A stretch of 64,000 nt of DNA from Achromobacter xylosoxidans (GTDB lineage: Bacteria; Pseudomonadota; Gammaproteobacteria; Burkholderiales; Burkholderiaceae_B), in assembly GCF_001457475.1 (NCBI RefSeq), contig NZ_LN831029.1:3658001-3722000 (forward strand). Direction: 5' to 3'. Below are positions 2,745 through 17,864 of this stretch, one piece after another. The notes beneath the pieces were generated by a model. That model had not been told where the DNA came from and did no database searches. It saw only the letters and a program-made list of their open reading frames with translations. The position numbers were made by a program, and so were the translations under genes. Positions within the stretch are counted from its first letter, which is position 1. Every line of letters begins with the position of its first letter.

Positions 2745-4031
2745 TCAGAGCACGCTGCGCATGGCCTGGTCCATGTCGGCGATCAGGTCTTCCTCGTGCT
2801 CCAGGCCGATGGAAATGCGGATCAGGCCTTCGGACACGCCGGCCGCGTCGCGTTCGGCCGCCGGCACGCCGGAATGCGTGGTCGAGGCCGGGTGGCAGAC
2901 CAGCGATTCGGTGCCACCCAGGCTCACCGCCGACTTGAACAGGCGCAGCGCGTTGATGAAGCGGAACGCCTTGGCGCGGCCGCCGTCCAGCACGAATGCG
3001 AAGGTCGAGCCCGGCCCCGTGCACTGGCGCTTGTAGACCGCCTGGTAGGCCTCGTCGGCAATGGTCTCGGGATGGTAGATGCGCACTTTCTCGTGCGGAT
3101 TGCCCGCCAGCCATTGCGCCACGCGGGTGGCGCTGCGGGCGGCCTGCTTCATGCGCAGCACCACGGTCTCCATCGAGCGCGTGATCATCCAGCACGAGTG
3201 CGGATCGAGCTGCGAGCCGAAGGCGCTGCGGATGGCGCGCACCTTCTTGATCAGGTCTTTCGAGCCGGTGACCGCGCCGGCCACCAGGTCGCTGTGGCCG
3301 CCCACGTATTTGGTCAGCGAATACACGCACAGGTCCACGCCATGCTCGGCCGGCTTCTGGAAGATCGGGCCCAGCAGCGTGTTGTCGCACACCGAGATCG
3401 GGCGGTAGCCGTGGCGCGCGGCAAACGCGTCCAGCTCGGCCTTCATGGCCTGGAAGTCGATCAGCGCATTGGTGGGATTGGCCGGCGTTTCCACGTAGAA
3501 CAGCTTCACCGGCCCCTTGGCGGCGGCCGCTTCCAGCGCATCGCGCATGCTCTGCGCCGACAGGCCGTCGTGGATCGGGTGCGAGCCGATGCCCCATTCC
3601 GGGAAGATCTTGGCGATCAGGGTCTCGGTGCCGCCGTACAGCGGCACCGACTGCACCAGCTGGTCGCCCGGGCGCAGGAACGCCAGGAACACCGCGCTGA
3701 TGGCCGACATGCCGCTGGAGGTCACCGCCGCGTCCTCCGAGCCATCCAGCAGCGACAGGCGATCCTCGACGATCTCCAGGTTGGGATGGTTGAAGCGGCT
3801 GTACACCAGCCCGGCCGACTCGCCCTGCGGCAGCGGCTTGCGGCCCGACACCAGGTCGAAGAACTCGGCGCCGTCCTCGGCCGAGCGGAAGGCGAAGGTG
3901 GACGTGAGGAATACCGGCGGCTTGACCGCGCCTTCGGACAGGAAGGGATCGAAGCCGTACGACATCATCTGCGTCTCGGCGTGCAGCGGACGGCCGGAAA
4001 TGTCTTTCTTGTGATAGCTGGAGTAACTCAT
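2745..4031 (-). CDS. Cys/Met-metabolism PLP enzyme (methionine gamma-lyase / cystathionine gamma-synthase family)
   Basis: 428-residue fold-type I PLP enzyme. The Schiff-base lysine is K241 in YSLTKYVGGHSD, preceded by the cofactor-contacting VCDNT motif at about 214-218. An N-terminal YSRFNHPN segment and SSGMSA, which positions PLP phosphate, are also present. Members either eliminate methanethiol from methionine or condense homoserine esters with cysteine or sulfide. Proteins with this long N-terminus are usually annotated only as cystathionine gamma-synthase family or methionine gamma-lyase, and the reaction cannot be fixed from sequence. It is transcribed away from an Lrp/AsnC regulator. 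That arrangement is common for amino-acid catabolic genes controlled by the adjacent Lrp protein, so a catabolic lyase is the more likely role. Confidence 0.85.
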   Translation of the reverse strand: MSYSSYHKKDISGRPLHAETQMMSYGFDPFLSEGAVKPPVFLTSTFAFRSAEDGAEFFDLVSGRKPLPQGESAGLVYSRFNHPNLEIVEDRLSLLDGSEDAAVTSSGMSAISAVFLAFLRPGDQLVQSVPLYGGTETLIAKIFPEWGIGSHPIHDGLSAQSMRDALEAAAAKGPVKLFYVETPANPTNALIDFQAMKAELDAFAARHGYRPISVCDNTLLGPIFQKPAEHGVDLCVYSLTKYVGGHSDLVAGAVTGSKDLIKKVRAIRSAFGSQLDPHSCWMITRSMETVVLRMKQAARSATRVAQWLAGNPHEKVRIYHPETIADEAYQAVYKRQCTGPGSTFAFVLDGGRAKAFRFINALRLFKSAVSLGGTESLVCHPASTTHSGVPAAERDAAGVSEGLIRISIGLEHEEDLIADMDQAMRSVL

Positions 4032-4177
4032 GGCGTGCCTCTCAATGGGGGAAGTGCGGCCTACCTGACGGCGATATCACGGATTCGGACACGATAGCGC
4101 CGCCGGCCGGGGGATGCAGCGAGTATGGGCGCGTCCGGCCACAATATTCTTTCCATTTCTACTCTTTGGATCGGATA

Positions 4178-4198
4178 ATGGGAAATATCGTTTCCCAT
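4178..4198. promoter_or_regulatory. Perfect inverted repeat before the Lrp gene (probable operator)
   Basis: ATGGGAAA-N5-TTTCCCAT has 8-bp perfect arms. It lies between the Lrp gene and the divergent PLP enzyme, with a GATAAT -10-like hexamer at 4174-4179 overlapping its left arm. Lrp/AsnC proteins commonly autoregulate through AT-rich palindromes of this size. The ATG at 4178 is part of the palindrome, which argues for the later start at 4211. Confidence 0.5.
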
Positions 4199-4210
4199 AC
4201 CTTCGAAACC

Positions 4211-4690
4211 ATGAAAGAGACTGCCTTGTTACATCAACTTGACGCGATCGATTGGAAAATCATGAAAATCCTTCAAGAAGATGGCCGGCTCTCCAACGCC
4301 GAACTGGCCGAGCGCGTGTCGCTGTCGGCCTCGCCCTGCTGGAAGCGCCTCAAGCGCCTGGAGACCTCGGGCGTCATCCGCGGCTACCAGGCCATCCTGG
4401 ACCGCCGCGCGCTCGGCATGGGGGTGGTGGCGTTCGTCAGCATCTCGCTGGAAAACCACACCGAAAAAACCTGCCGCGCGTTCGAGGCGGCGGTGGCCGC
4501 CATGCCCGAAGTGCTGGCCTGCCACAACACCACGGGCCAGCACGACTACCTGCTGCACATCGTGGCGCGCGACTTCGACGCCTATTCCGAATTCGTGCGC
4601 AACCGGCTGCGCACCCTGCCCGGCGTCAAGGAACTGCTCAGCACGCTGTCGATGCACGAAGTGAAGTCGTCGACCAAGCTGCACCTGTGA
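4211..4690 (+). CDS. Lrp/AsnC family transcriptional regulator
   Basis: 159-residue Lrp-type regulator. The N-terminal winged helix-turn-helix begins at LDAIDWKIMKILQEDGRLSN, with SASPCWKRLKRLE as recognition helix. The C-terminal RAM/AsnC ligand domain (GMGVVAFVSI ... TGQHDYLLHIVA) forms the effector-binding octamer in this family. The frame is open further upstream to a TTG at 4166 and an ATG at 4178, but those codons fall in or next to a perfect palindrome that looks like the operator. The ATG at 4211 also gives the usual family length, so it is preferred. It is divergent from the PLP Cys/Met enzyme, which it probably controls in response to an amino acid. Confidence 0.9.
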   Translation: MKETALLHQLDAIDWKIMKILQEDGRLSNAELAERVSLSASPCWKRLKRLETSGVIRGYQAILDRRALGMGVVAFVSISLENHTEKTCRAFEAAVAAMPEVLACHNTTGQHDYLLHIVARDFDAYSEFVRNRLRTLPGVKELLSTLSMHEVKSSTKLHL

Positions 4691-4703
4691 TCCCGCAATG
4701 ACC

Positions 4704-4735
4704 GGCGCCGGGCCGTTCCAGCGCGGCCCGGCGCC
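4704..4735. terminator. 12-bp GC hairpin after the Lrp gene
   Basis: GGCGCCGGGCCG and CGGCCCGGCGCC form a perfect 12-bp stem with an 8-base loop, starting 14 bases after the Lrp stop codon. There is no T-run after it, so it could be a weak or Rho-assisted terminator rather than a strong intrinsic one. Confidence 0.4.
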
Positions 4736-4826
4736 TGCCCGCCAAATGCCAGGGAGTGTCACGAAGCTGTAGCGACCCGTGCCTAGAGTGTCGATTCCGA
4801 TTGAATCCCAAAGAGGACTTCCTGTC

Positions 4827-5945
4827 ATGAAATCGACTCTCCGCATCGCGGCGGCTGGCGCCTGCCTGTCCGTCTTCAGCTTCTCCCCCGCCCTCGCGGC
4901 GACGGCCACTTCCAGCTCGGTCCAGCTCTACGGCCTGGTCGACACCGGCCTGCAATACCTCAGCAACGGACCCAGCGGCAACAGCAAGACGGGCATGAGC
5001 ACGGGCAACCTGAGCGGCTCGCGCTGGGGCCTGCGCGGCACCGAAGACCTGGGCGACGGCCTGTCGACCGTGTTCGTGCTGGAAAACGGCTTCGACTCCG
5101 GCAACGGCACCACCATGCAGGGCGGCCGCCTGTTCGGCCGCCAGGCCTATGTCGGCCTGTCGAGCAAGAGCTTGGGCCGCCTGACGCTGGGCCGCCACAA
5201 CACGCTCATGATCGACTGGATGAGCAAGTACAACCCGTTCGACAACGCCAACTTCTCGATCAAGCGCCCCGACGCGGCCTTCTCGGACCGCACCGACAAC
5301 GCGGTGATGTACGTCGGCAAGTTCGGTCCCGTGTCCGTCGGCGGCTACTACAGCTTCGGCTGGAACAACGAGCAGTCGTTCGACGACAAGACGCTGGGCC
5401 GCATGCTCGGCGGCGGCGTGCGCTATCAGTCGGGCGGCCTGGACGCCGGCCTGCTGTACCACTCCAAGCATGCCGACAAGCCGGCCAAGGGCGCCAACAG
5501 CGACAACCGCGAAGACCGCATCGTCGCCGGGCTGTCGTATGACTTCGAGGGCGTGAAGGTCTACGCCGGCTACCGCTGGCTGGAACAGAAGCTGACGCAG
5601 CGCACCTACAAGAACAACCTGACCTGGCTGGGCGTGACCTACCTGCCGGTGCAGAACAACCGCCTGTCGTTGGCCGTGTACCACCTGAACGACTCGGTCT
5701 GCGACGACATGAACAATGCCGTCTGCCCGGCCGCGCAGGCCGCCGGCACCGGCCAGAAGTCCACCATGTTCGTCCTGGGCAACGAATACGACCTGTCCAA
5801 GCGCACCACCGTCTACGCCGTCGCGGCCTACGCGGTCAACGACGACAAGTCGGCGCAAAGCGTGGTCGGCGGCAAGTACGGCGCCAACGTCGAGCCGGGC
5901 AAGAACCAGCTCGGCCTGAACCTCGGCCTGCGGCACCGGTTTTGA
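4827..5945 (+). CDS. Outer-membrane porin (Gram-negative trimeric, OmpC/BP0840-like)
   Basis: 372-residue general porin of the Burkholderiales type. A Sec signal peptide, [24 protein letters not shown], precedes mature [18 protein letters not shown]. Alternating beta-strands follow, including [17 protein letters not shown] and VFVLENGF. It ends [10 protein letters not shown] with the C-terminal Phe recognised by the BAM complex. The ATG at 4827 is chosen because AGAGG lies just upstream and the signal peptide begins there. Its TGA overlaps the TTG start of an ABC ATPase, so this porin probably heads the transport operon and may supply the outer-membrane route for the same solute. It could also simply be a general porin. 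Confidence 0.9.
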
Positions 5946-9367: not shown

Positions 9368-10411
9368 TCAGACCGGATCCGGCGTGTCCCCGGCCGACGG
9401 CAGCGGCCCCTGCACCACGCGGTTGCGGCCCTGGCGCTTAGCCTGGTAAAGACCGCGATCGGCGATCTGGATCAGATCCGTGCAGGGCTGGTCGACCACG
9501 GGCACGGCGGTGGCGGTGCCGATACTGACCGTCAGCCAGGGGCCGCCGCCGTTGTCCTTCTGCGGAATCTGCATGGCCTCGACCGCGCGCCGCAGTTTCT
9601 CGGCGGCCAGGCGCGCGCTGCCCGCCGGCGTGCCCGGCAGCACCAGCGCGAATTCCTCGCCGCCAAAGCGCGCGGCCAGGTCGGTGGAACGGTCGCAGCT
9701 GGCGAAGATGGTGTTGGCCACGCGCTTGAGCGCCTCGTCGCCGGCGATATGGCCGTAGGTATCGTTGTAGGACTTGAAATGGTCCACGTCGATCATCAGC
9801 ATGCTGATTTCGCGGCCGTCGCGGCGCGCGCGCAGCCATTCGGCGTTGAGGTATTCGTCGAAATAGCGGCGATTGCCCAGCCCGGTCAGGCCATCGGAAT
9901 TGGTCAGGCGGCGCAGTTCCATATTGCTTTCCAGCAATTGCTGCTGGCTCTGGCGCAGCGCCTGGTAGGCCTCGTCGCGCTGCACCAGCGCCAGGTACGA
10001 GCGCGAATGGTAGCGGATGCGCGCCACCAGCTCGATCGAATCGGGCAGCTTCACCAGGTAGTCGTTGGCGCCGGCCGCGAAGGCGGCGCTCTTGATGGCG
10101 GGGTCTTCCTTGGTCGACAGGACGATGATGGGAATATCGCGCGTGACCGGATGGCTGCGGTATTCCTGCACCAGGCTCAGGCCGTCCACCCCGGGCAGCA
10201 CCAGGTCCTGCAGGATCACGGTGGGCCGGGTCTGCACCGCCACCGTCAGCGCCTTGTACGGATCGGAGCAGTAATGGAAGTCGATATTGCCCTCCGTGGC
10301 CAGGGCCCTGCGGATCGCCTCGCCGACCATGACCTGATCATCGACCAGCAGCACCATGGCCGCGTGCGAGTTCAGGTCGGCCGAAGCCGGGCTGTCAATG
10401 GGAGGGTGCAT
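9368..10411 (-). CDS. wspR: WspR: response regulator diguanylate cyclase
   Basis: 347-residue output protein of the Wsp pathway. The N-terminal receiver domain ([13 protein letters not shown], phosphoacceptor Asp in [12 protein letters not shown], Lys in VKLPDS) is joined by a coiled helix to a GGDEF domain. The cyclase signature reads GGEEF, an active form. RSTD sits five residues upstream and matches the RxxD inhibitory site, so product inhibition by c-di-GMP should be intact. Phosphorylation by WspE in related bacteria makes WspR cluster and synthesise c-di-GMP, favouring biofilm. It is the last gene of the operon, 36 bp after wspF, with AAGGAAAG as ribosome site. Confidence 0.95.
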
Positions 10412-10447: not shown

Positions 10448-11464
10448 TCAGGCAAAAGCCTGGATCAAGCGGGGTGCGATCCTGTCCAACGGCCGGATTT
10501 CGACCGCGGCCTGTATCGCGGCGGCCGCCTTGGGCATGCCATAGACCGCGCTGGTGGCCTGGTCCTGGGCGATGGTCAGGCAGCCGCGGTCGCGCAGCGC
10601 CTTCAGGCCACGGGCGCCGTCCTGTCCCATGCCGGTCAGCAGCACGCCGACGGCCAGCCCGCGCCAGTGCTGCGCGACGCTATGGAAAAATACATCGATG
10701 GAGGGACGGTACAGGCTTTCCTTCGGATTCTCGGTGTAACGCAGCGTACCATCGGCCACCAGGTGCAGATGGTCGTCGGTGCCGGCCAGCAGCACCTGCC
10801 CTGGCGTCGGCCGCTCGCCTTCGCGCACCAGCCGCACGGGCAATTCGACCTGATCGTTGAGCCAGTCGGCCATGCCGGCGGCGAACGAGGCGTCCACATG
10901 CTGCACCAGCACGATGCCGGCCGGGAACGTGACCGGAATATCGCGTAACAACTGTGCCAGGGTCGCCGGACCGCCGGCGGAGGCGCCAATCACCAGCAGG
11001 CCCTGCGACGGCCCCGCTTGCGCCGCGTCGCGGACCACCGGCGTGAGCGCGGTGCGGTTATTGCCATAGCGTCCGATCAGCCAGCCGATATTGCGGATCT
11101 TGCGCAGCAGCGGCGCGGCCGCGCTGCGCAGGTCGGCGCCGCCCACCACCGGCGTGTCGGCGGCGTCCAGCGCGCCGTAGCCCATGGCGTCGAACACGCG
11201 CGCGGTATGGCGTGCCACGTCCACCGTGACCACCACGATGGCGCAAGGCGTTTCGGCCATGATGCGGCGGGTGGCCTCGACGCCGTCCATGACGGGCATG
11301 ACGAGGTCCATCAGCACCACGTCGGGCCGGTCCTGCGCGCATTGCTGCACCGCCTCCAGGCCGTTGGACGCGACCCAGGCGACCTCCAGCCCTGGTTCCA
11401 GCGCGATCACGCGCCTGAGGGTTTCCACCGCCATCTGCATATCGTTGACGATTCCGACTCTCAC
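10448..11464 (-). CDS. wspF: WspF: CheB-like protein-glutamate methylesterase
   Basis: 338-residue negative regulator that demethylates the WspA receptor. The receiver domain (GIVNDMQMAVETL, Asp in VLMDLVMPVMDG) is followed by a CheB catalytic domain. That domain has Ser in VIGASAGGP, His in VLVQHVDASF and Asp in LTGMGQDGA, the complete triad. The start is a GTG overlapping the wspE TGA (GTGA), indicating coupled translation. Loss of WspF is the classic cause of constitutively high c-di-GMP in Pseudomonas. Here the frame and catalytic residues are intact, so this adaptation brake should work. Confidence 0.94.
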   Translation of the reverse strand: MRVGIVNDMQMAVETLRRVIALEPGLEVAWVASNGLEAVQQCAQDRPDVVLMDLVMPVMDGVEATRRIMAETPCAIVVVTVDVARHTARVFDAMGYGALDAADTPVVGGADLRSAAAPLLRKIRNIGWLIGRYGNNRTALTPVVRDAAQAGPSQGLLVIGASAGGPATLAQLLRDIPVTFPAGIVLVQHVDASFAAGMADWLNDQVELPVRLVREGERPTPGQVLLAGTDDHLHLVADGTLRYTENPKESLYRPSIDVFFHSVAQHWRGLAVGVLLTGMGQDGARGLKALRDRGCLTIAQDQATSAVYGMPKAAAAIQAAVEIRPLDRIAPRLIQAFA

Positions 11465-13722
11465 GTCCGCGCCTTTCCGATCAGGTCTTCCACGGCGTCC
11501 AGCAAGGCGTCGTCGTGGAAACTGCCCTTGGCCAGGTAATAGTCGGCGCCCGCGTCCAGCCCGCGCCGCCGATCCTCTTCTCGATCCTTGTAGGACACTA
11601 CCATTACCGGCAGGCTTTGCAACTTGGGATCGGCCTTGATGCGCGACACCAGTTCGATGCCGTCCATGCGCGGCATGTCCACGTCGGTCACCACCAGGTC
11701 GAAGGCCTCGTTGCGCAGCATGTTCCAGCCGTCCATGCCGTCCACCGCCACCGCCACATCGAAACCGCGGTTCAGCAGCAACTTGCGTTCCAGCTCGCGC
11801 ACCGTCAGGGAATCGTCCACCACCAGCACGCGCTTGCGCCGGCGCGCCTGCGCCACCGGACCGCCGCCATCCACCCGCGCCAGGCGGCCGCCCTCGACCA
11901 GCTTCTGCACCGACAGCAGCATATCCTCGACATCCAGGATCAGCAGCGGCGTGCCATCGTCCATCAGCGAGCCGGCCATCACGTCCTGCACCTTGCCCAG
12001 GCGTGGATCCAGCGGCTGCACCACCAGGGTGCGCTCGCCGACGTAGCGGTCGACGGCGATGCCGTAGAGCCTGTCGTGGTCGCCGACGACTACCACCGGC
12101 AATGTCTCGGCGGCCGGCGCCGGCGCGCCGGAGCGCAGGATCTGGCGCGCCGACACCAGGCCAATCTGGCGGTCCATGAAGCGGAAATGCTGGTGCCCTT
12201 CGAGCTGCTCGATGTCCTGCGCCCGCACCTGCAGCGCGTGGCTGACGTAGGCCAGCGGAAACGCGTAGATCTCGCCCTGCACTTCGACCAGCAGGCTGCG
12301 CACCACCGACAGCGACAGCGGCATCTCCAGCACGAAGCGCGTGCCCTGCCCGGTCTGCTGGTGGATGCGCACGGCGCCGCGCAGTTGCCGCACCATGGTC
12401 TGCACCACGTCCAGCCCGACGCCGCGGCCCGAGATCTCGGTGACCTCGCCGCGCGTGCTGAAGCCGGACAGGAACAGGAATTCCAGCAGCTCGGCCTCGC
12501 TCAGGCGGGCCGCGGTCTCGGCATTGGTCAGCTTGCGCTGCACCACTTCGACCCGCAGGCGATCGAGCGAAATGCCGGCGCCGTCATCGCTCAGTTCAAT
12601 CAGCAGCATGCCGGCCGCGTGACGCGCCGACAGCCGTATCAGCCCTTCGGCCGGCTTGCCGGCCTCCAGGCGATCCATCGGCATCTCGATACCGTGGTCG
12701 ACCGCGTTGCGCAGCAGGTGCATCAACGGGGCGTCGAGTTTGTCCAGGATGTCGCGGTCGACCTGGGTCGAATCGCCCTCGACCTCCAGCCGCACCTGCT
12801 TGCCCAGCGAGCGTCCCAGGTCGCGCACCATGCGCGCCATGCCGCCCAGGCCGTCGCCGAACGGCCGCATGCGGCAGGCCAGCGCGGTGTCGTACAGGCG
12901 CTGCGCCAGGTGGCCCATGCGCCAGCCGAACTCATCGACCTCGCTGGCGCGCTGCGCCAGTTCCCGCTGGCAGGCCTCGACGATGCGCTGGGCGTCATCC
13001 AGCGCCGCCTGGCTGCGGGCGTCGATGTGCACGCCGGCCAGCGAGGCGCGCAGGCTGTCCAGCGCCTGGCCGGCGCCGGACTGCAGCCGCCGCAGCCGCA
13101 GCATGGAGGCGCTGAACGGCGCGATCCAATGCGATTCGACCAGGGTTTCGCTGGACAGGCCGAGCAGTTTGTTGAGCGTATCGGCGGTGACCCGCAGCAC
13201 CCGCTCACCCTCGCCCAGCGTCTGGTCCGAACTGCGGCGCGCCGGCGGCGGCGCGGGCGGCGGATCATCGGGCTGGTGGATGGGCGGCAGGAAATCCGAA
13301 GGCTTGGGCGGCCGCTCGACCACCGGCGCGGCCGGCGGCGCATTGGGCGCATTCGACAGGCGCGTCACCAGCGTGTCGATCTCTTCGCCCAGTTCGACGC
13401 CCGGGGTGGCAACCCGCTGCAGCAGGTCCGCGCCCAGCAGCAGCGCATCGATGTCGGCGGCCTGCAGGCGCAGCCGGCCTTCCTGCGCGGCCACCAGGCA
13501 GTCCTCCATGGCGTGCGCGATGCGCACCGCCGGGTACAGGTCGACGATACGCGCCGCGCCCTTGAGCGAATGCGCCGCGCGCATGCAGGCTTCCAGCTGC
13601 GGCGCCGAGGTCGGGTCGTGCTCGAGCGCCAGCAGGCCGTTGTTCAGCACCTGCACCTGATTGCGGGTTTCCAGCTGGAACAGCTCCAGCAGCGAGGCAT
13701 CGCGCATCTGGTCCGGGTTCAC
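11461..13722 (-). CDS. wspE: WspE: hybrid CheA-type histidine kinase with receiver
   Basis: 753-residue kinase of the surface-sensing complex. The N-terminal Hpt domain has phospho-His in AHSLKGAARIV. Dimerisation and ATPase regions follow (LLRNAVDHGIEMP N-box; DDGAGI and GRGVGLDVV G-boxes). Next come a CheW-like domain and a C-terminal receiver (RVLVVDDSLTVRELE, Asp in VVTDVDMPRMDG). It phosphorylates WspR and WspF. The frame is open much further upstream, through wspD, but the GTG at 13722 overlaps the wspD TGA and starts VNPDQMRDASLLELF, which matches the expected WspE N-terminus. GTG starts with 4-base overlaps recur in this operon, showing tight coupling. Confidence 0.95.
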   Translation of the reverse strand: MNPDQMRDASLLELFQLETRNQVQVLNNGLLALEHDPTSAPQLEACMRAAHSLKGAARIVDLYPAVRIAHAMEDCLVAAQEGRLRLQAADIDALLLGADLLQRVATPGVELGEEIDTLVTRLSNAPNAPPAAPVVERPPKPSDFLPPIHQPDDPPPAPPPARRSSDQTLGEGERVLRVTADTLNKLLGLSSETLVESHWIAPFSASMLRLRRLQSGAGQALDSLRASLAGVHIDARSQAALDDAQRIVEACQRELAQRASEVDEFGWRMGHLAQRLYDTALACRMRPFGDGLGGMARMVRDLGRSLGKQVRLEVEGDSTQVDRDILDKLDAPLMHLLRNAVDHGIEMPMDRLEAGKPAEGLIRLSARHAAGMLLIELSDDGAGISLDRLRVEVVQRKLTNAETAARLSEAELLEFLFLSGFSTRGEVTEISGRGVGLDVVQTMVRQLRGAVRIHQQTGQGTRFVLEMPLSLSVVRSLLVEVQGEIYAFPLAYVSHALQVRAQDIEQLEGHQHFRFMDRQIGLVSARQILRSGAPAPAAETLPVVVVGDHDRLYGIAVDRYVGERTLVVQPLDPRLGKVQDVMAGSLMDDGTPLLILDVEDMLLSVQKLVEGGRLARVDGGGPVAQARRRKRVLVVDDSLTVRELERKLLLNRGFDVAVAVDGMDGWNMLRNEAFDLVVTDVDMPRMDGIELVSRIKADPKLQSLPVMVVSYKDREEDRRRGLDAGADYYLAKGSFHDDALLDAVEDLIGKART

Positions 13723-14408
13723 GCCAGGCTCCGTTCCAAGGCTTGCATCAACAGGGTCTCGTCCAGCACGCCGACGCTGCGGGCGCCACAGCGAACCACG
13801 CCGCGCGAGTACTTCAGGCTGGCGCCTTCGATGGTCGCCGGCAAGGCTTCGAGCGCCTCCAGGTCCACGCCATGAATACCCTCCACCTCGTCGACCGGCA
13901 ACACCACGGCGCGGCCCGCGCCGCCGAAAATCAGCATGCGCGCCGCGGCCGGCCGCTCGCGGCCGCTGTCGACCGCCGCCCCCTCCAGGCCCAGCAGGCG
14001 GCCGAGCGAGACACAGACCGTCAGCGTGCCGCGCATGTTGGTAACCCCCAGCACCGCGGGGTCGCGCCGGTGCGGCAGGGTCAGGATCGGGCGTGTGCCC
14101 GCCACTTCGTCCAGCGCCTTGGTCGGCAGGCCCAGCCATTCCCCCTGCAGGCGGAACACCAGCAGCGATGACAGCCGCCCCCGGTCGGCCTGGGCCGCGC
14201 CGGCGCCGTCGTCCACGCCTTCGGCCTGCGGCGGCAGGCGGTCGAGGATGCGCTTGGCGGCGTCGGCGTACACCGGGCAGTTGCGGCAATGCACGTAGCC
14301 GGCCAGGCGCTCGCAGCGCTTGTCGCCGCGGATGCCGATGCGGTTCCAGCAGTCGTCCACCTCCGCCAGTCTGGCCAGCGAATCCAGCGAATCCGGAAAA
14401 TCACTCAC
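13719..14408 (-). CDS. wspD: WspD: CheW-like adaptor, also translatable alone from internal GTG
   Basis: The same frame as the fusion C-terminus, started at the GTG at 14408, gives a 229-residue WspD, the normal length for this adaptor. A strong AGGAGG (14420-14415) stands six bases before the GTG, so free WspD is probably still made alongside the fusion. It links WspA to WspE. A cysteine-rich stretch CERLAGYVHCRNCPVY precedes the CheW domain, as in other WspD proteins. Its TGA overlaps the wspE GTG. Confidence 0.65.
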   Translation of the reverse strand: MSDFPDSLDSLARLAEVDDCWNRIGIRGDKRCERLAGYVHCRNCPVYADAAKRILDRLPPQAEGVDDGAGAAQADRGRLSSLLVFRLQGEWLGLPTKALDEVAGTRPILTLPHRRDPAVLGVTNMRGTLTVCVSLGRLLGLEGAAVDSGRERPAAARMLIFGGAGRAVVLPVDEVEGIHGVDLEALEALPATIEGASLKYSRGVVRCGARSVGVLDETLLMQALERSLA

Positions 14409-15728
14409 GGCGGGCCTCCTGGCGCGCGGCGCGCGCCTGCAAGCGGCGCGCGCCTGCAAGCGGCGGGCGCCTTCGTGGTCGCCTTCGGCCGCGATCAGCG
14501 CCGCCAGGTGCAGCAACGCCTCCCGGTGCGCGGGGTCCAGGTACAGCGCCTTGCGGTAGGCAGCCTGGGCCGCGCGCGTGTCGCCGTCGGCGTCCTGCAG
14601 CAGGCCCAGCAGGTACAAAGCCTCGGCGCTGGCGCCATGCCGTTCGAGATGGGCGCGGCATTGCGCCAGGGCGTCCCGCACCCGCCCCTGGTCGGCCAGC
14701 GCCGCGATCTCGCGCAGGGCTGCCGCGGTGTCCTGGCCCGCTTGCGCGGGCGTTCCGTGCGGCGCCGGGGATGCCGCATGCGGCCGCGCCGGGGCGGCCG
14801 GCGCGTAGGGCTGTGGACGCGCGGCCGGCATCCAGGGCCGGGCCGCGCGCGGCGCCACGACGGGCGGCGGCGTGGCACGGCCGCTCGCCGCGCCCGCCGT
14901 CCGGGCCGGCGCGGCCTCGGTCGGCGGCGCGGGCTCGGCGCGAAAGGCGAACGCCCGCGCCAGCGGCACGGCCGGCAGGCGCCGGCCGGTCATCAGGCTG
15001 GTCTCGGCCGGCCCCACGAACAGGATGCCGTCGTGGCGGGCAAAACGCCTGAGCACCGTCACCGCGCGCTCCTGCGTGGGCGCGTCGAAATAGATCAACA
15101 GATTGCGGCAGAACACGAAATCGTACGGCGCCGCGTTCGGCAGCAGGGCCGGGTCGAACAGGTTGCCGGCCAGCAAGCGCACGCGCGCCGTGACATGCTC
15201 CGTCAGTTGATGGCCATCGGCGGTTTCGGTGAAATAGCGGTCACGGTACGACAGCGATTCGCCGCGGAATGAATTGCGGCCGTAGCAGGCGCGTCGGGCA
15301 AACGCCACCATGCGTTCGCTGATGTCCACGGCGTCCACCTGGAAGCGCTCCGCCGGCACGCCCGCGTCCAGCAACGCCATGGCGATGGAGTACGGTTCTT
15401 CGCCACTGGAACAGGGAACGCTCAGCACGCGCAACTGGCGCGCCTCGGCGCCCGGCGCGAAGAGGCGCTCGCGCGCCAGCGCCGCCATCGCCGCCTGGGA
15501 TTCCGGATACCGGAAGAACCACGTCTCCGGCACGATCACCGCTTCGATCAGCTGCTGCATTTCGGCCGGCGAAGTCTGCAGGCGCATCAGGTAGTCGTGC
15601 TCGTCGTCGCTGCCCACCGACTGCATCCGATGACGCACCGCGCGCTCGACCGCGGCCGCGCCGATGGAACCGCTGTCCAGCCCCATCTTGCGCTTGAGCA
15701 CCGCGCTGAAGTCGTCCACCAGCATCAT
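13719..15728 (-). CDS. wspCD: WspC-WspD fusion: CheR-type methyltransferase plus TPR joined to CheW-like adaptor
   Basis: One 669-codon frame encodes what are normally two proteins. Residues 1 to about 270 form a CheR methyltransferase (VPETWFFR, SVPCSSGEEPYSIAM, FCRNLLIYF). An Ala/Pro-rich linker follows, then TPR helices to about 425. From Val441, VSDFPDSLDSLARL begins a complete WspD CheW domain (LVFRLQGEWLGLP, GVTNMRGTL). The join lies at residues 422-435, where a 17-bp tandem duplication shifts the frame. Deleting one copy restores a WspC ending RAARQEARRE and a stop that overlaps the wspD start. The ATG overlaps the wspB TGA. The fused protein would tether the methyltransferase to the receptor array. 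Confidence 0.85.
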   Translation of the reverse strand: MMLVDDFSAVLKRKMGLDSGSIGAAAVERAVRHRMQSVGSDDEHDYLMRLQTSPAEMQQLIEAVIVPETWFFRYPESQAAMAALARERLFAPGAEARQLRVLSVPCSSGEEPYSIAMALLDAGVPAERFQVDAVDISERMVAFARRACYGRNSFRGESLSYRDRYFTETADGHQLTEHVTARVRLLAGNLFDPALLPNAAPYDFVFCRNLLIYFDAPTQERAVTVLRRFARHDGILFVGPAETSLMTGRRLPAVPLARAFAFRAEPAPPTEAAPARTAGAASGRATPPPVVAPRAARPWMPAARPQPYAPAAPARPHAASPAPHGTPAQAGQDTAAALREIAALADQGRVRDALAQCRAHLERHGASAEALYLLGLLQDADGDTRAAQAAYRKALYLDPAHREALLHLAALIAAEGDHEGARRLQARAACRRAPRARRPAVSDFPDSLDSLARLAEVDDCWNRIGIRGDKRCERLAGYVHCRNCPVYADAAKRILDRLPPQAEGVDDGAGAAQADRGRLSSLLVFRLQGEWLGLPTKALDEVAGTRPILTLPHRRDPAVLGVTNMRGTLTVCVSLGRLLGLEGAAVDSGRERPAAARMLIFGGAGRAVVLPVDEVEGIHGVDLEALEALPATIEGASLKYSRGVVRCGARSVGVLDETLLMQALERSLA
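14415..14420 (-). promoter_or_regulatory. Ribosome binding site inside wspCD for free WspD
   Basis: AGGAGG on the minus strand, six bases ahead of the GTG at 14408. It is a near-perfect Shine-Dalgarno inside the fused frame and supports independent translation of wspD. Confidence 0.65.
14426..14465. repeat. 17-bp tandem duplication joining wspC and wspD frames
   Basis: Bases 14426-14448 are repeated exactly at 14443-14465, a period of 17 with about 2.4 copies of GCGCGCGCCTGCAAGCG. Because 17 is not a multiple of three, the second copy shifts the end of wspC into the wspD frame. Removing one unit restores the expected wspC stop at 14401-14403. Confidence 0.97.
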
Positions 15729-16240
15729 GGCTGCGCTCCCCCGGCCGGGAACAGCATCGCCCGCACCGGCTCCGGCAACAGGTCGACGACCCGCAGCGCC
15801 TGCACCATGCCATGGCCGTCGCTCAGCACCGGGCCCAGGTAACGGGCCTGCGGCATATCCAGGCCCACCGGCTGAAAGGCGGCGGGGTCATAGTGGACCG
15901 TTTCCGTGGCGCGCTCCAGGATCAGCCCCAGCAGGCGCGCGTCGCGCTCGCCGGCGGGCCGATAGCGCACCAGCGCCAGCCGCGTGCTGGTCACCTTGGC
16001 CGCCGCGCCCGCTCCGGCCAGCGCGCTCAGATCGATGGCCGGCACCGCCGCGCCGTGGCAATCGAACATGCCCGCCACCCAGGCCGGCGTGCCCGGCACC
16101 TGCTTGAACGGGCGCATGCCCAGCACCTCGACCACGTCGGCCGCGTCCAGCGCATAGCGGTCGGCGCCGATGCGGAACAGCAGGTACAGCCGGCGGCCGG
16201 CGCCGGCCCCCGCGGACGGGATCGGGGCGAGGTCGGGCAT
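15725..16240 (-). CDS. wspB: WspB: CheW-like adaptor
   Basis: 171-residue single CheW domain: RLYLLFRIGADRYALDAADVVEVL, then GMFDCHGAAVPAIDLSAL, the typical ligand-loop region contacting receptor and kinase. In Wsp systems WspB and WspD couple the WspA receptor to WspE. The TGA overlaps the ATG of the next gene (ATGA), and the gene begins four bases before the wspA stop, consistent with one polycistronic message. Confidence 0.93.
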   Translation of the reverse strand: MPDLAPIPSAGAGAGRRLYLLFRIGADRYALDAADVVEVLGMRPFKQVPGTPAWVAGMFDCHGAAVPAIDLSALAGAGAAAKVTSTRLALVRYRPAGERDARLLGLILERATETVHYDPAAFQPVGLDMPQARYLGPVLSDGHGMVQALRVVDLLPEPVRAMLFPAGGAQP

Positions 16241-16244
16241 GGAA

Positions 16245-17864
16245 TCACACCTTGAAGCGCGACACGCCGCTGCGCAGGTCGTTGGCCACCAGCGTCAGTT
16301 CCTCGATCGCCAGGCTCGACTGGCGCAGCGATTCCACCGTCTGCTGGGCCGCATCGCTCAGTTGCTGCAATGCCTGGTTGATCTGCTCGGCGCCGGTGGC
16401 CTGCGCCTGCATGCCTTCGTTGACCATCTGCACGCGCGGCGCCAGCGTCTGCACCTGCTGGATGATCTGCGACAACTGGTCGCCGACCTGCTGCATGTCG
16501 GCCATGCCGCGGCGCACCTCTTCCGAGAACTTGTCCATGCCCATGACGCCGGCCGACACCGACGACTGGATCTCGCGCACCATTTGCTCGATGTCGTAGG
16601 TGGCCACGGCGGTCTGGTCCGCCAGCCGGCGGATCTCGGTGGCCACCACGACAAAGCCGCGGCCGTATTCGCCGGCCTTCTCGGCCTCGATGGCCGCGTT
16701 CAGCGACAGCAGGTTGGTCTGGTCGGCCACCTTGGTGATGGTGGTGACCACTTGCGTGATATTGCCCGCTTTCTCGTTCAGGATGGCCAGCTTGGCGTTG
16801 ACCGAGCCCGCCGCCCCGACCACGTTGCGCATGGTGTCTTCCATGCGCGCCAGGCCCACCTGGCCGCTGCCGGCCAGCGATGCCGTCTGCTCCGCCGCGC
16901 TGGAGACCTCAGTCATGGTGCGGACCAGTTCGCGCGAGGTCGCGGAAATCTCGCGCGAGGTCGCGCCGATCTCGGTGGTGGTGGCCGCCACTTCCGATGC
17001 GGTGGCCTGCTGCTGCTTGGACGTGGCCGCGATTTCGGTCACCGACGTGGCCACCTGCACCGCCGAGCGCTGGGTCTTGCCGACCAGGCCGGTCAGCTCG
17101 TCCACCATGCCATTGAAGCCGCTCTCGATGGCATTGAACTCGTCCTTGCGGGCCAGCGTCAGGCGGCGTGTCAGGTCGCCGCCGCCGGTCGCCTCGAGCG
17201 TCTTGACGATGGCGCTCATGGGGTTGACGATGGCGCGCAGCAGCAACACGCCGCAGATGATGGCGGCCACGATGGCCAGCCCCAACGACACCAGCATGCC
17301 GACTTCGGCCTTTTCGACCGCCTTCTGGATGCCGATCGCCGACTCGTCGGCCTGCTCCTTGTTGGCCGCCACCATCGTGGCCAGCACATCGCGGCCGGCG
17401 TAGAACGCGGGGCGCAGGTCGCTCTTGATCTTGGCCTGGGCCCGCGCCGGATCGGCCAGCATGGCCGGCTCCAGGATTTCGGCGCGGATGCGCATGTACG
17501 TCTGCAGCGCCTTCTCGAAATCGGCGAACATGCGCTGGTCCTCGCCGCGAACCACGGTGCGGCGGTATTGCTCGATGTCGTCCTTCAGGTGCTGGTCGTT
17601 CTTGGGCAGCGCCGCCAGGCCGGCCTGGCGCTCCTGTTCGGTATCACTGTTGAAGGCGTCCTGCACCGCCACGAAGCCGGCAAACCACGACGCCCGTATC
17701 GAGGTGCTGTAGTAGATGCCGGGCACCGCGTCGGTATTGATCGACTTGGCCTCGGCCTCGACCTGCAACAGCCGCTGGTAATCGACCACGACCATCAGCG
17801 CCATGATGGCCAGGATCACCAGGAAACTGGCGATGATGCGCTCGCGGAGTGTCAGATTCTTCAT
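16245..17864 (-). CDS. wspA: WspA: methyl-accepting chemotaxis-type surface-sensing receptor
   Basis: 539-residue transmembrane receptor. TM1 is about residues 10-27, followed by a periplasmic helical domain of about 160 residues. TM2 is at 188-209, then a HAMP segment ([13 protein letters not shown]). A long coiled coil has the conserved signalling tip [26 protein letters not shown]. The frame is open 40 codons further up, but [11 protein letters not shown] at 17864 is the membrane-anchoring start expected for a receptor. It heads the minus-strand wsp operon and in Pseudomonas clusters laterally on surface contact. Methylation by WspC and demethylation by WspF set its sensitivity. Confidence 0.95.

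What the first reader, a model, noticed from the sequence alone, without database searches (positions are those of the whole stretch)
13719..15728. wspC and wspD fused into one protein by a 17-bp tandem duplication
The exact repeat at 14426-14465 has period 17. Deleting one copy restores a WspC ending in RAARQEARRE with TGA at 14401-14403, overlapping the wspD GTG at 14408. With both copies the frame runs through to give a 669-residue CheR-TPR-CheW fusion. The native wspD ribosome site AGGAGG and GTG remain, so fusion and free WspD may both be made. Slippage could revert the fusion, so this may be a reversible state altering receptor methylation and c-di-GMP output. Mutations in wsp genes are a well-known route to biofilm-type variants.
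Basis: partly seen in the sequence, partly recalled or inferred. Interest (0 to 1): 0.82.

Follow-up and report, generated by a model that had tools for sequence, protein, structure and literature searches.

The report
Repeat slip fusing two biofilm-signalling genes
A 17-base stutter in the DNA has joined two neighbouring surface-sensing genes of an Achromobacter bacterium into one, a kind of joint already seen in laboratory biofilm mutants of another bacterium, and the same stutter arose separately in a second Achromobacter species.

Summary
Window 14426-14465 is an exact period-17 repeat, and wspC and wspD form one open frame of 669 codons (13719-15728, minus strand). It is a mutation, not the genus norm: of 39 Achromobacter genomes whose wspC/wspD junction I read, 37 have one copy and no fusion. 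Two are fused, the window's genome and A. pestifer LMG 3431, each by its own 17-bp duplication. An unfused WspC 98% identical to the window's represents a 193-member protein cluster; a 5-member cluster representative carries the window's junction peptide; an A. pestifer WspC is also unfused. Many one-copy junctions already hold an imperfect 17-bp direct repeat, so the site is probably slippage-prone. WspF matches at full length and WspE is open in all 39. WspC-WspD fusions made by other lesions are published wrinkly (biofilm) mutants of P. fluorescens SBW25. Best reading: a young, recurrent slippage mutation that tethers the methyltransferase WspC to the WspA-WspE complex and pushes WspR toward making c-di-GMP. 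Lesion, recurrence and coexistence of both forms are shown; activation is inferred from SBW25; reversibility is plausible but untested. A programmed switch is not shown. No structure model ran.

The parts
13719..15728 (-). fused wspC-wspD ORF, 669 aa: CheR methyltransferase, TPR, CheW
   Evidence: open frame; Pfam CheR, TPR_8, CheW
14422..14472 (-). three 17-bp units at the end of wspC; the middle unit (14455-14439) is the hybrid, extra one
   Evidence: TRF 14426-14472; exact 23-bp run at lag 17 from 14426; absent from 37 of 39 genus genomes
14406..14420 (-). native wspD ribosome site AGGAGG (14420-14415) and GTG start (14408-14406), now inside the fused frame
   Evidence: a Shine-Dalgarno-like site before the GTG in 37 of 39 distinct junction sequences
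14401..14403 (-). TGA where relatives end wspC, bypassed here
15725..16240 (-). wspB (CheW)
16245..17864 (-). wspA chemoreceptor (4HB_MCP, HAMP, MCPsignal); ATG start inferred
11461..13707 (-). wspE hybrid kinase (Hpt, HATPase, CheW, receiver); ATG start inferred
   Evidence: open in 39 of 39 genus genomes with the operon
10448..11464 (-). wspF (CheB-type methylesterase)
   Evidence: matched 1-338 without stops in 39 of 39
9368..10411 (-). wspR (receiver and GGDEF)

Best explanation
The window carries a young activating-type mutation of the Wsp surface-sensing pathway. DNA slippage between the two halves of an imperfect 17-bp direct repeat at the end of wspC added one unit. The +17 shift puts wspC into the wspD frame just before the wspC stop, so the stop is bypassed and CheR-TPR-CheW is made as one chain. 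Tethering WspC to WspD holds the methyltransferase at the WspA-WspB-WspD-WspE array, so WspA stays methylated against WspF, WspE stays active and WspR makes more c-di-GMP, hence more biofilm. Shown here: the repeat, the fused frame, its absence from 37 of 39 genus genomes, an independent second case, unfused near-identical proteins in both species, open wspE and wspF. Inferred from published SBW25 fusion mutants: activation and biofilm. Inferred from the repeat: occasional reversion by loss of a unit.
For: Repeat and fusion. One-copy, unfused state in 37 of 39 Achromobacter genomes with the junction (43 searched; read) and in 53 of 53 kept non-Achromobacter loci (80 of 489 relatives kept). Independent A. 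pestifer LMG 3431 event. Unfused counterparts P0002 (98% identity, 193 members) and P0123 (A. pestifer, 10 members); P0001 (5 members) with the window's junction peptide. Imperfect lag-17 repeat in one-copy junctions. WspF full length and WspE open in 39 of 39. SBW25 WspC-WspD fusions are wrinkly mutants, one with fitness like wspF mutants (passages).
Against: No phenotype, c-di-GMP or methylation data for Achromobacter. The seed repeat is not unique: exact repeats of 6 bp or more occur in 24 of 37 unfused junctions at lag 7 and 24 of 37 at lag 9, against 22 of 37 at lag 17. The single-strand DNA fold is unremarkable (z -0.76). P0001 has a frame change in its CheW part. The new linker changes the last residues of WspC and its effect on the TPR part was not modelled (searches did not run). 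Only two fusions in 39 genomes.
Confidence: 0.6

Rival explanations
1. A contingency switch: the degenerate 17-bp repeat is kept by selection, and cells toggle often between separate and fused WspC/WspD.
For: Two independent +17 events at one boundary; fused and unfused forms in both species; coding tandem repeats of B. thailandensis penA revert at 9.3e-7 and 3.6e-5 (passages).
Against: No mixed culture or rate; 37 of 39 genomes in one state; the seed repeat may follow from GC-rich coding, and lags 7 and 9 are as common.
Confidence: 0.17
2. A neutral or loss-of-function change, or one fixed during storage of reference strains, without raised Wsp output.
For: Both fused genomes are one strain each, and G001 has a frameshifted wspC, so wspC damage is tolerated. 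P0001 is further broken in its CheW part.
Against: Both fusions keep CheR, TPR and CheW in frame, and wspE and wspF stay open; SBW25 fusions activate.
Confidence: 0.18
3. Assembly or sequencing artefact.
For: GC-rich repeat; P0059, P0121 and P0122 show that indel-ridden records can fake such fusions.
Against: The window lies in a single-contig genome; P0001 from a 10,204-bp contig has the same junction peptide, though it may be the same strain; a second species has its own version.
Confidence: 0.04

Closest known systems
WspC-WspD fusion wrinkly-spreader mutants of Pseudomonas fluorescens SBW25 (PMC6324874, PMC13101516; passages seen)
   Same: WspC and WspD of a Wsp system joined in one chain by a single mutation; proposed tethering of WspC to the WspA-B-D complex.
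   Different: Laboratory-evolved; one made by a 335-bp deletion, the other of unstated kind in the passages seen. Here a +17-bp duplication in deposited genomes of another genus, seen in two species.
R-type Wsp systems (PMC8552884; passages seen)
   Same: wspA-B-C-D-E-F-R gene set with a GGDEF WspR, in a genus that paper lists.
   Different: The words fused, fusion and duplication do not occur in that paper's main text.
Reversible de novo tandem repeats in a coding region, B. thailandensis penA (PMC4169377; abstract and passages seen)
   Same: Short tandem duplication between direct repeats, with measured reversion.
   Different: There the repeat alters one protein; here it joins two genes, and reversion was not measured.

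Membership tests
Wsp R-type chemosensory system | MCP, two CheW, CheR-TPR, CheA-type hybrid kinase, CheB and receiver-GGDEF genes together | tested here: met
   Pfam domains of the six ORFs
Wsp R-type chemosensory system | surface contact raises c-di-GMP through WspR | not testable with these tools
   no phenotype data
WspC-WspD fusion mutant class (SBW25) | one frame joins WspC to WspD, and unfused relatives exist | tested here: met
WspC-WspD fusion mutant class (SBW25) | wrinkly colony, raised c-di-GMP | not testable with these tools
   no isolates
Phase-variable contingency locus | repeat tract conserved beyond what coding needs | tested here: inconclusive
   exact lag-17 repeat of 6 bp or more in 22 of 37 distinct unfused junctions, but 24 of 37 at lags 7 and 9
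Phase-variable contingency locus | both states found within one species | tested here: met
   P0001 and window against P0002; L001 against P0123; representatives only, species of the first pair inferred
Phase-variable contingency locus | high-frequency, reversible switching in culture | not testable with these tools
   needs amplicon counts

The most novel reading that the evidence does not exclude
Achromobacter carries a slippage site at the wspC/wspD boundary that reversibly converts two separate signalling proteins into one tethered protein: a phase switch that changes the wiring of a chemosensory array rather than turning a gene on or off.
Probability: 0.17. Interest if true: 0.8.

Novelty: new variant of a known kind. 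Interest (0 to 1): 0.5.

Why it matters
WspC-WspD fusion was described as a rare enabling mutation in laboratory evolution of SBW25 (PMC6324874, passages). Finding it twice in deposited genomes, by the same-sized slip at the same boundary, while wspE and wspF stay open in the 39 genomes with the operon, suggests that local repeat structure can steer which mutational route is taken in this genus. It gives a simple genotype (count the 17-bp units) for testing Wsp activation and reversion in isolates, and warns that a representative genome may carry an untypical wsp allele. I found no paper on a natural Achromobacter fusion in the searches, which cover only the open-licence library and of which I opened few papers.

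Tried and rejected
Rejected: a genus-wide long wspCD gene (37 of 39 genomes unfused); a chance repeat; a strong DNA hairpin as driver (z -0.76; 47 of 200 shuffles fold at least as well); a decayed operon (WspF matched 1-338 in 39 of 39; WspE aligned from its start in 32 of 39, and in the other seven only from residues 122-149 on but with open frames of 783-928 codons). P0059, P0121 and P0122 hold both WspC and WspD pieces but show scrambled stretches like indel errors and were not counted as fusions. Cluster sizes (193, 5, 10) are of 90%-identity clusters; I saw representatives only and do not know the state of each member.

Led nowhere: structure prediction never started, so alignment A1 went unused; the solved-structure search gave separate CheR and TPR relatives; the CheW family count in six genomes added nothing. 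Papers: the A. xylosoxidans cystic-fibrosis paper PMC8269239 has no 'wsp' word in its main text; PMC8370652 has no wspC, wspD or fusion; PMC11631409 passages name one wspC mutation without detail. The other papers listed were seen as listings only.

Full report
What is there. On the minus strand the window holds a wsp operon: wspA (16245-17864), wspB (15725-16240), a fused wspC-wspD (13719-15728), wspE (11461-13707), wspF (10448-11464) and wspR (9368-10411), assigned from ORFs and Pfam domains; the wspA and wspE starts are my choice. The fused ORF has 669 codons with CheR, TPR and CheW domains. The array at 14422-14472 has three 17-bp units; the exact period-17 part is 14426-14465. Its 23-bp run at lag 17 is the only exact run of 18 bp or more at lags 4-60 in the window; ten order-2 Markov windows had longest runs of 11-17 bp. 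TRF agrees.

Ancestral state. The genus search covered 43 genomes; 39 have the junction, and the same four (G003, G037, G040, G045; two of them incomplete) lack junction, WspE and WspF matches. I read the junction of each of the 39 (loci; script). In 37 the wspC tail has one copy and is not fused to wspD. In 36 of these wspC stops at the wspD start, as usual; in G001 the junction is also one-copy but wspC is frameshifted further up. Two are fused: the window's genome, and G035, whose contig length equals that of A. pestifer LMG 3431 (L001). The 39 genomes have 38 distinct junction sequences. The genome-contig scan kept 80 loci of 489 relatives: 27 are Achromobacter, of which 22 include the junction and one (L001) is fused; the other 53 (Pseudomonas, Burkholderia, Bordetella and others) are unfused. 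The two Achromobacter sets overlap and must not be added.

Independent events. In the window the extra unit is a hybrid: it begins like the downstream unit and ends like the upstream one. In LMG 3431 the extra unit is an exact copy of the upstream unit and carries that species' own bases. Both add 17 bp, bypass the wspC stop and read through the wspD start as Val. One-copy junctions suggest how: an exact repeat of 6 bp or more at lag 17 is found in 22 of 37 distinct unfused junctions (36 Achromobacter, one Bordetella). Lags 7 and 9 are as common (24 of 37 each), so the tail is repeat-rich and lag 17 is one of several seeds; this weakens the case for a dedicated hotspot.

Both forms within species. 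The protein search (best 120 of 2781 listed) gave P0001 (598 aa, 5 members), with the window's junction peptide, and P0002 (436 aa, 98% identity, 193 members), which ends RAARQEARRE, the native tail. For A. pestifer, P0123 (named so by its source, 10 members) is unfused and ends RAAREEARRE; no fused A. pestifer protein was in the 120 listed of 188. Of 175 proteins fetched end at a native-type tail and four hold the WspD motif DDCWN: P0001 and three scrambled records set aside. Cluster members were not seen one by one. P0001 ends early through a frame change in its CheW part, an error or a second change; whether P0001 comes from another strain is unknown.

Which species. G000 is unnamed. The named relatives nearest to it are Achromobacter; its WspE is 98% identical to that of A. 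ruhlandii LMG 1866.

How it most likely works. In SBW25, WspC is the methyltransferase of WspA, WspD one of two CheW-like scaffolds and WspF the opposing methylesterase (passages of PMC6324874). That paper reports a single WspC-WspD fusion among wrinkly mutants, of fitness like wspF mutants, and proposes that tethering raises methylation or blocks WspF. PMC13101516 (passages) reports another fusion, by a 335-bp deletion, in one wrinkly clone, and a 15-bp 1->2 duplication in wspF of others. By analogy the Achromobacter fusion should raise c-di-GMP. This step is inference. WspF matched at full length and WspE is open in the 39 genomes, so the pathway is kept.

Is it a switch? Loss of a 17-bp unit is plausible: coding repeats of B. 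thailandensis penA reverted at 9.3e-7 (TR10) and 3.6e-5 (TR11, 60-bp unit) (passages of PMC4169377). But no culture mixture or rate is available, the DNA fold is unremarkable, and GC-rich coding can explain the seed repeat. I call it a recurrent, probably reversible mutation and give a programmed switch 0.17.

Is WspD still made alone? The ribosome site and GTG are unchanged, and such a site is kept in 37 of 39 distinct junction sequences (38 Achromobacter, one Bordetella). In the fused allele ribosomes no longer stop at the boundary, so coupled re-initiation should fall. This is inference.

Verdict. Observation confirmed; interpretation partly supported. New here is a natural, twice-arisen fusion at a repeat-rich boundary; the kind of fusion and the kind of mutation are each known.

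Noticed in passing
L017:1341-3114 and 3116-4889 (A. pulmonis ANB-1; also L161, G047): A perfect 1774-bp repeat at lag 1775 runs from inside wspB through wspC into the start of wspD, giving two whole wspC copies. It may be real extra dosage of WspC or an assembly artefact of a draft genome.
   Followed up: partly
L151 (G001), wspC at about residues 359-373: wspC is frameshifted in its TPR part: the protein match changes frame there.
   Followed up: partly
protein P0001, C-terminal end: The cluster representative that shares the window's fusion peptide ends early through a frame change in its CheW part; error or second-site change.
   Followed up: no
window 14365-14408, minus strand: Just after the wspD start the window has two tandem GATTCGCTG units (9 bp, in frame), and L002 and L047 have a 9-bp insertion nearby: the start of wspD also changes by short repeats.
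   Followed up: no
window 11461-13713 against 13719-14408 and 15725-16240: WspE is 98% identical to A. ruhlandii LMG 1866 while WspD is 85% and WspB 79%: uneven constraint or recombination inside the operon.
   Followed up: no
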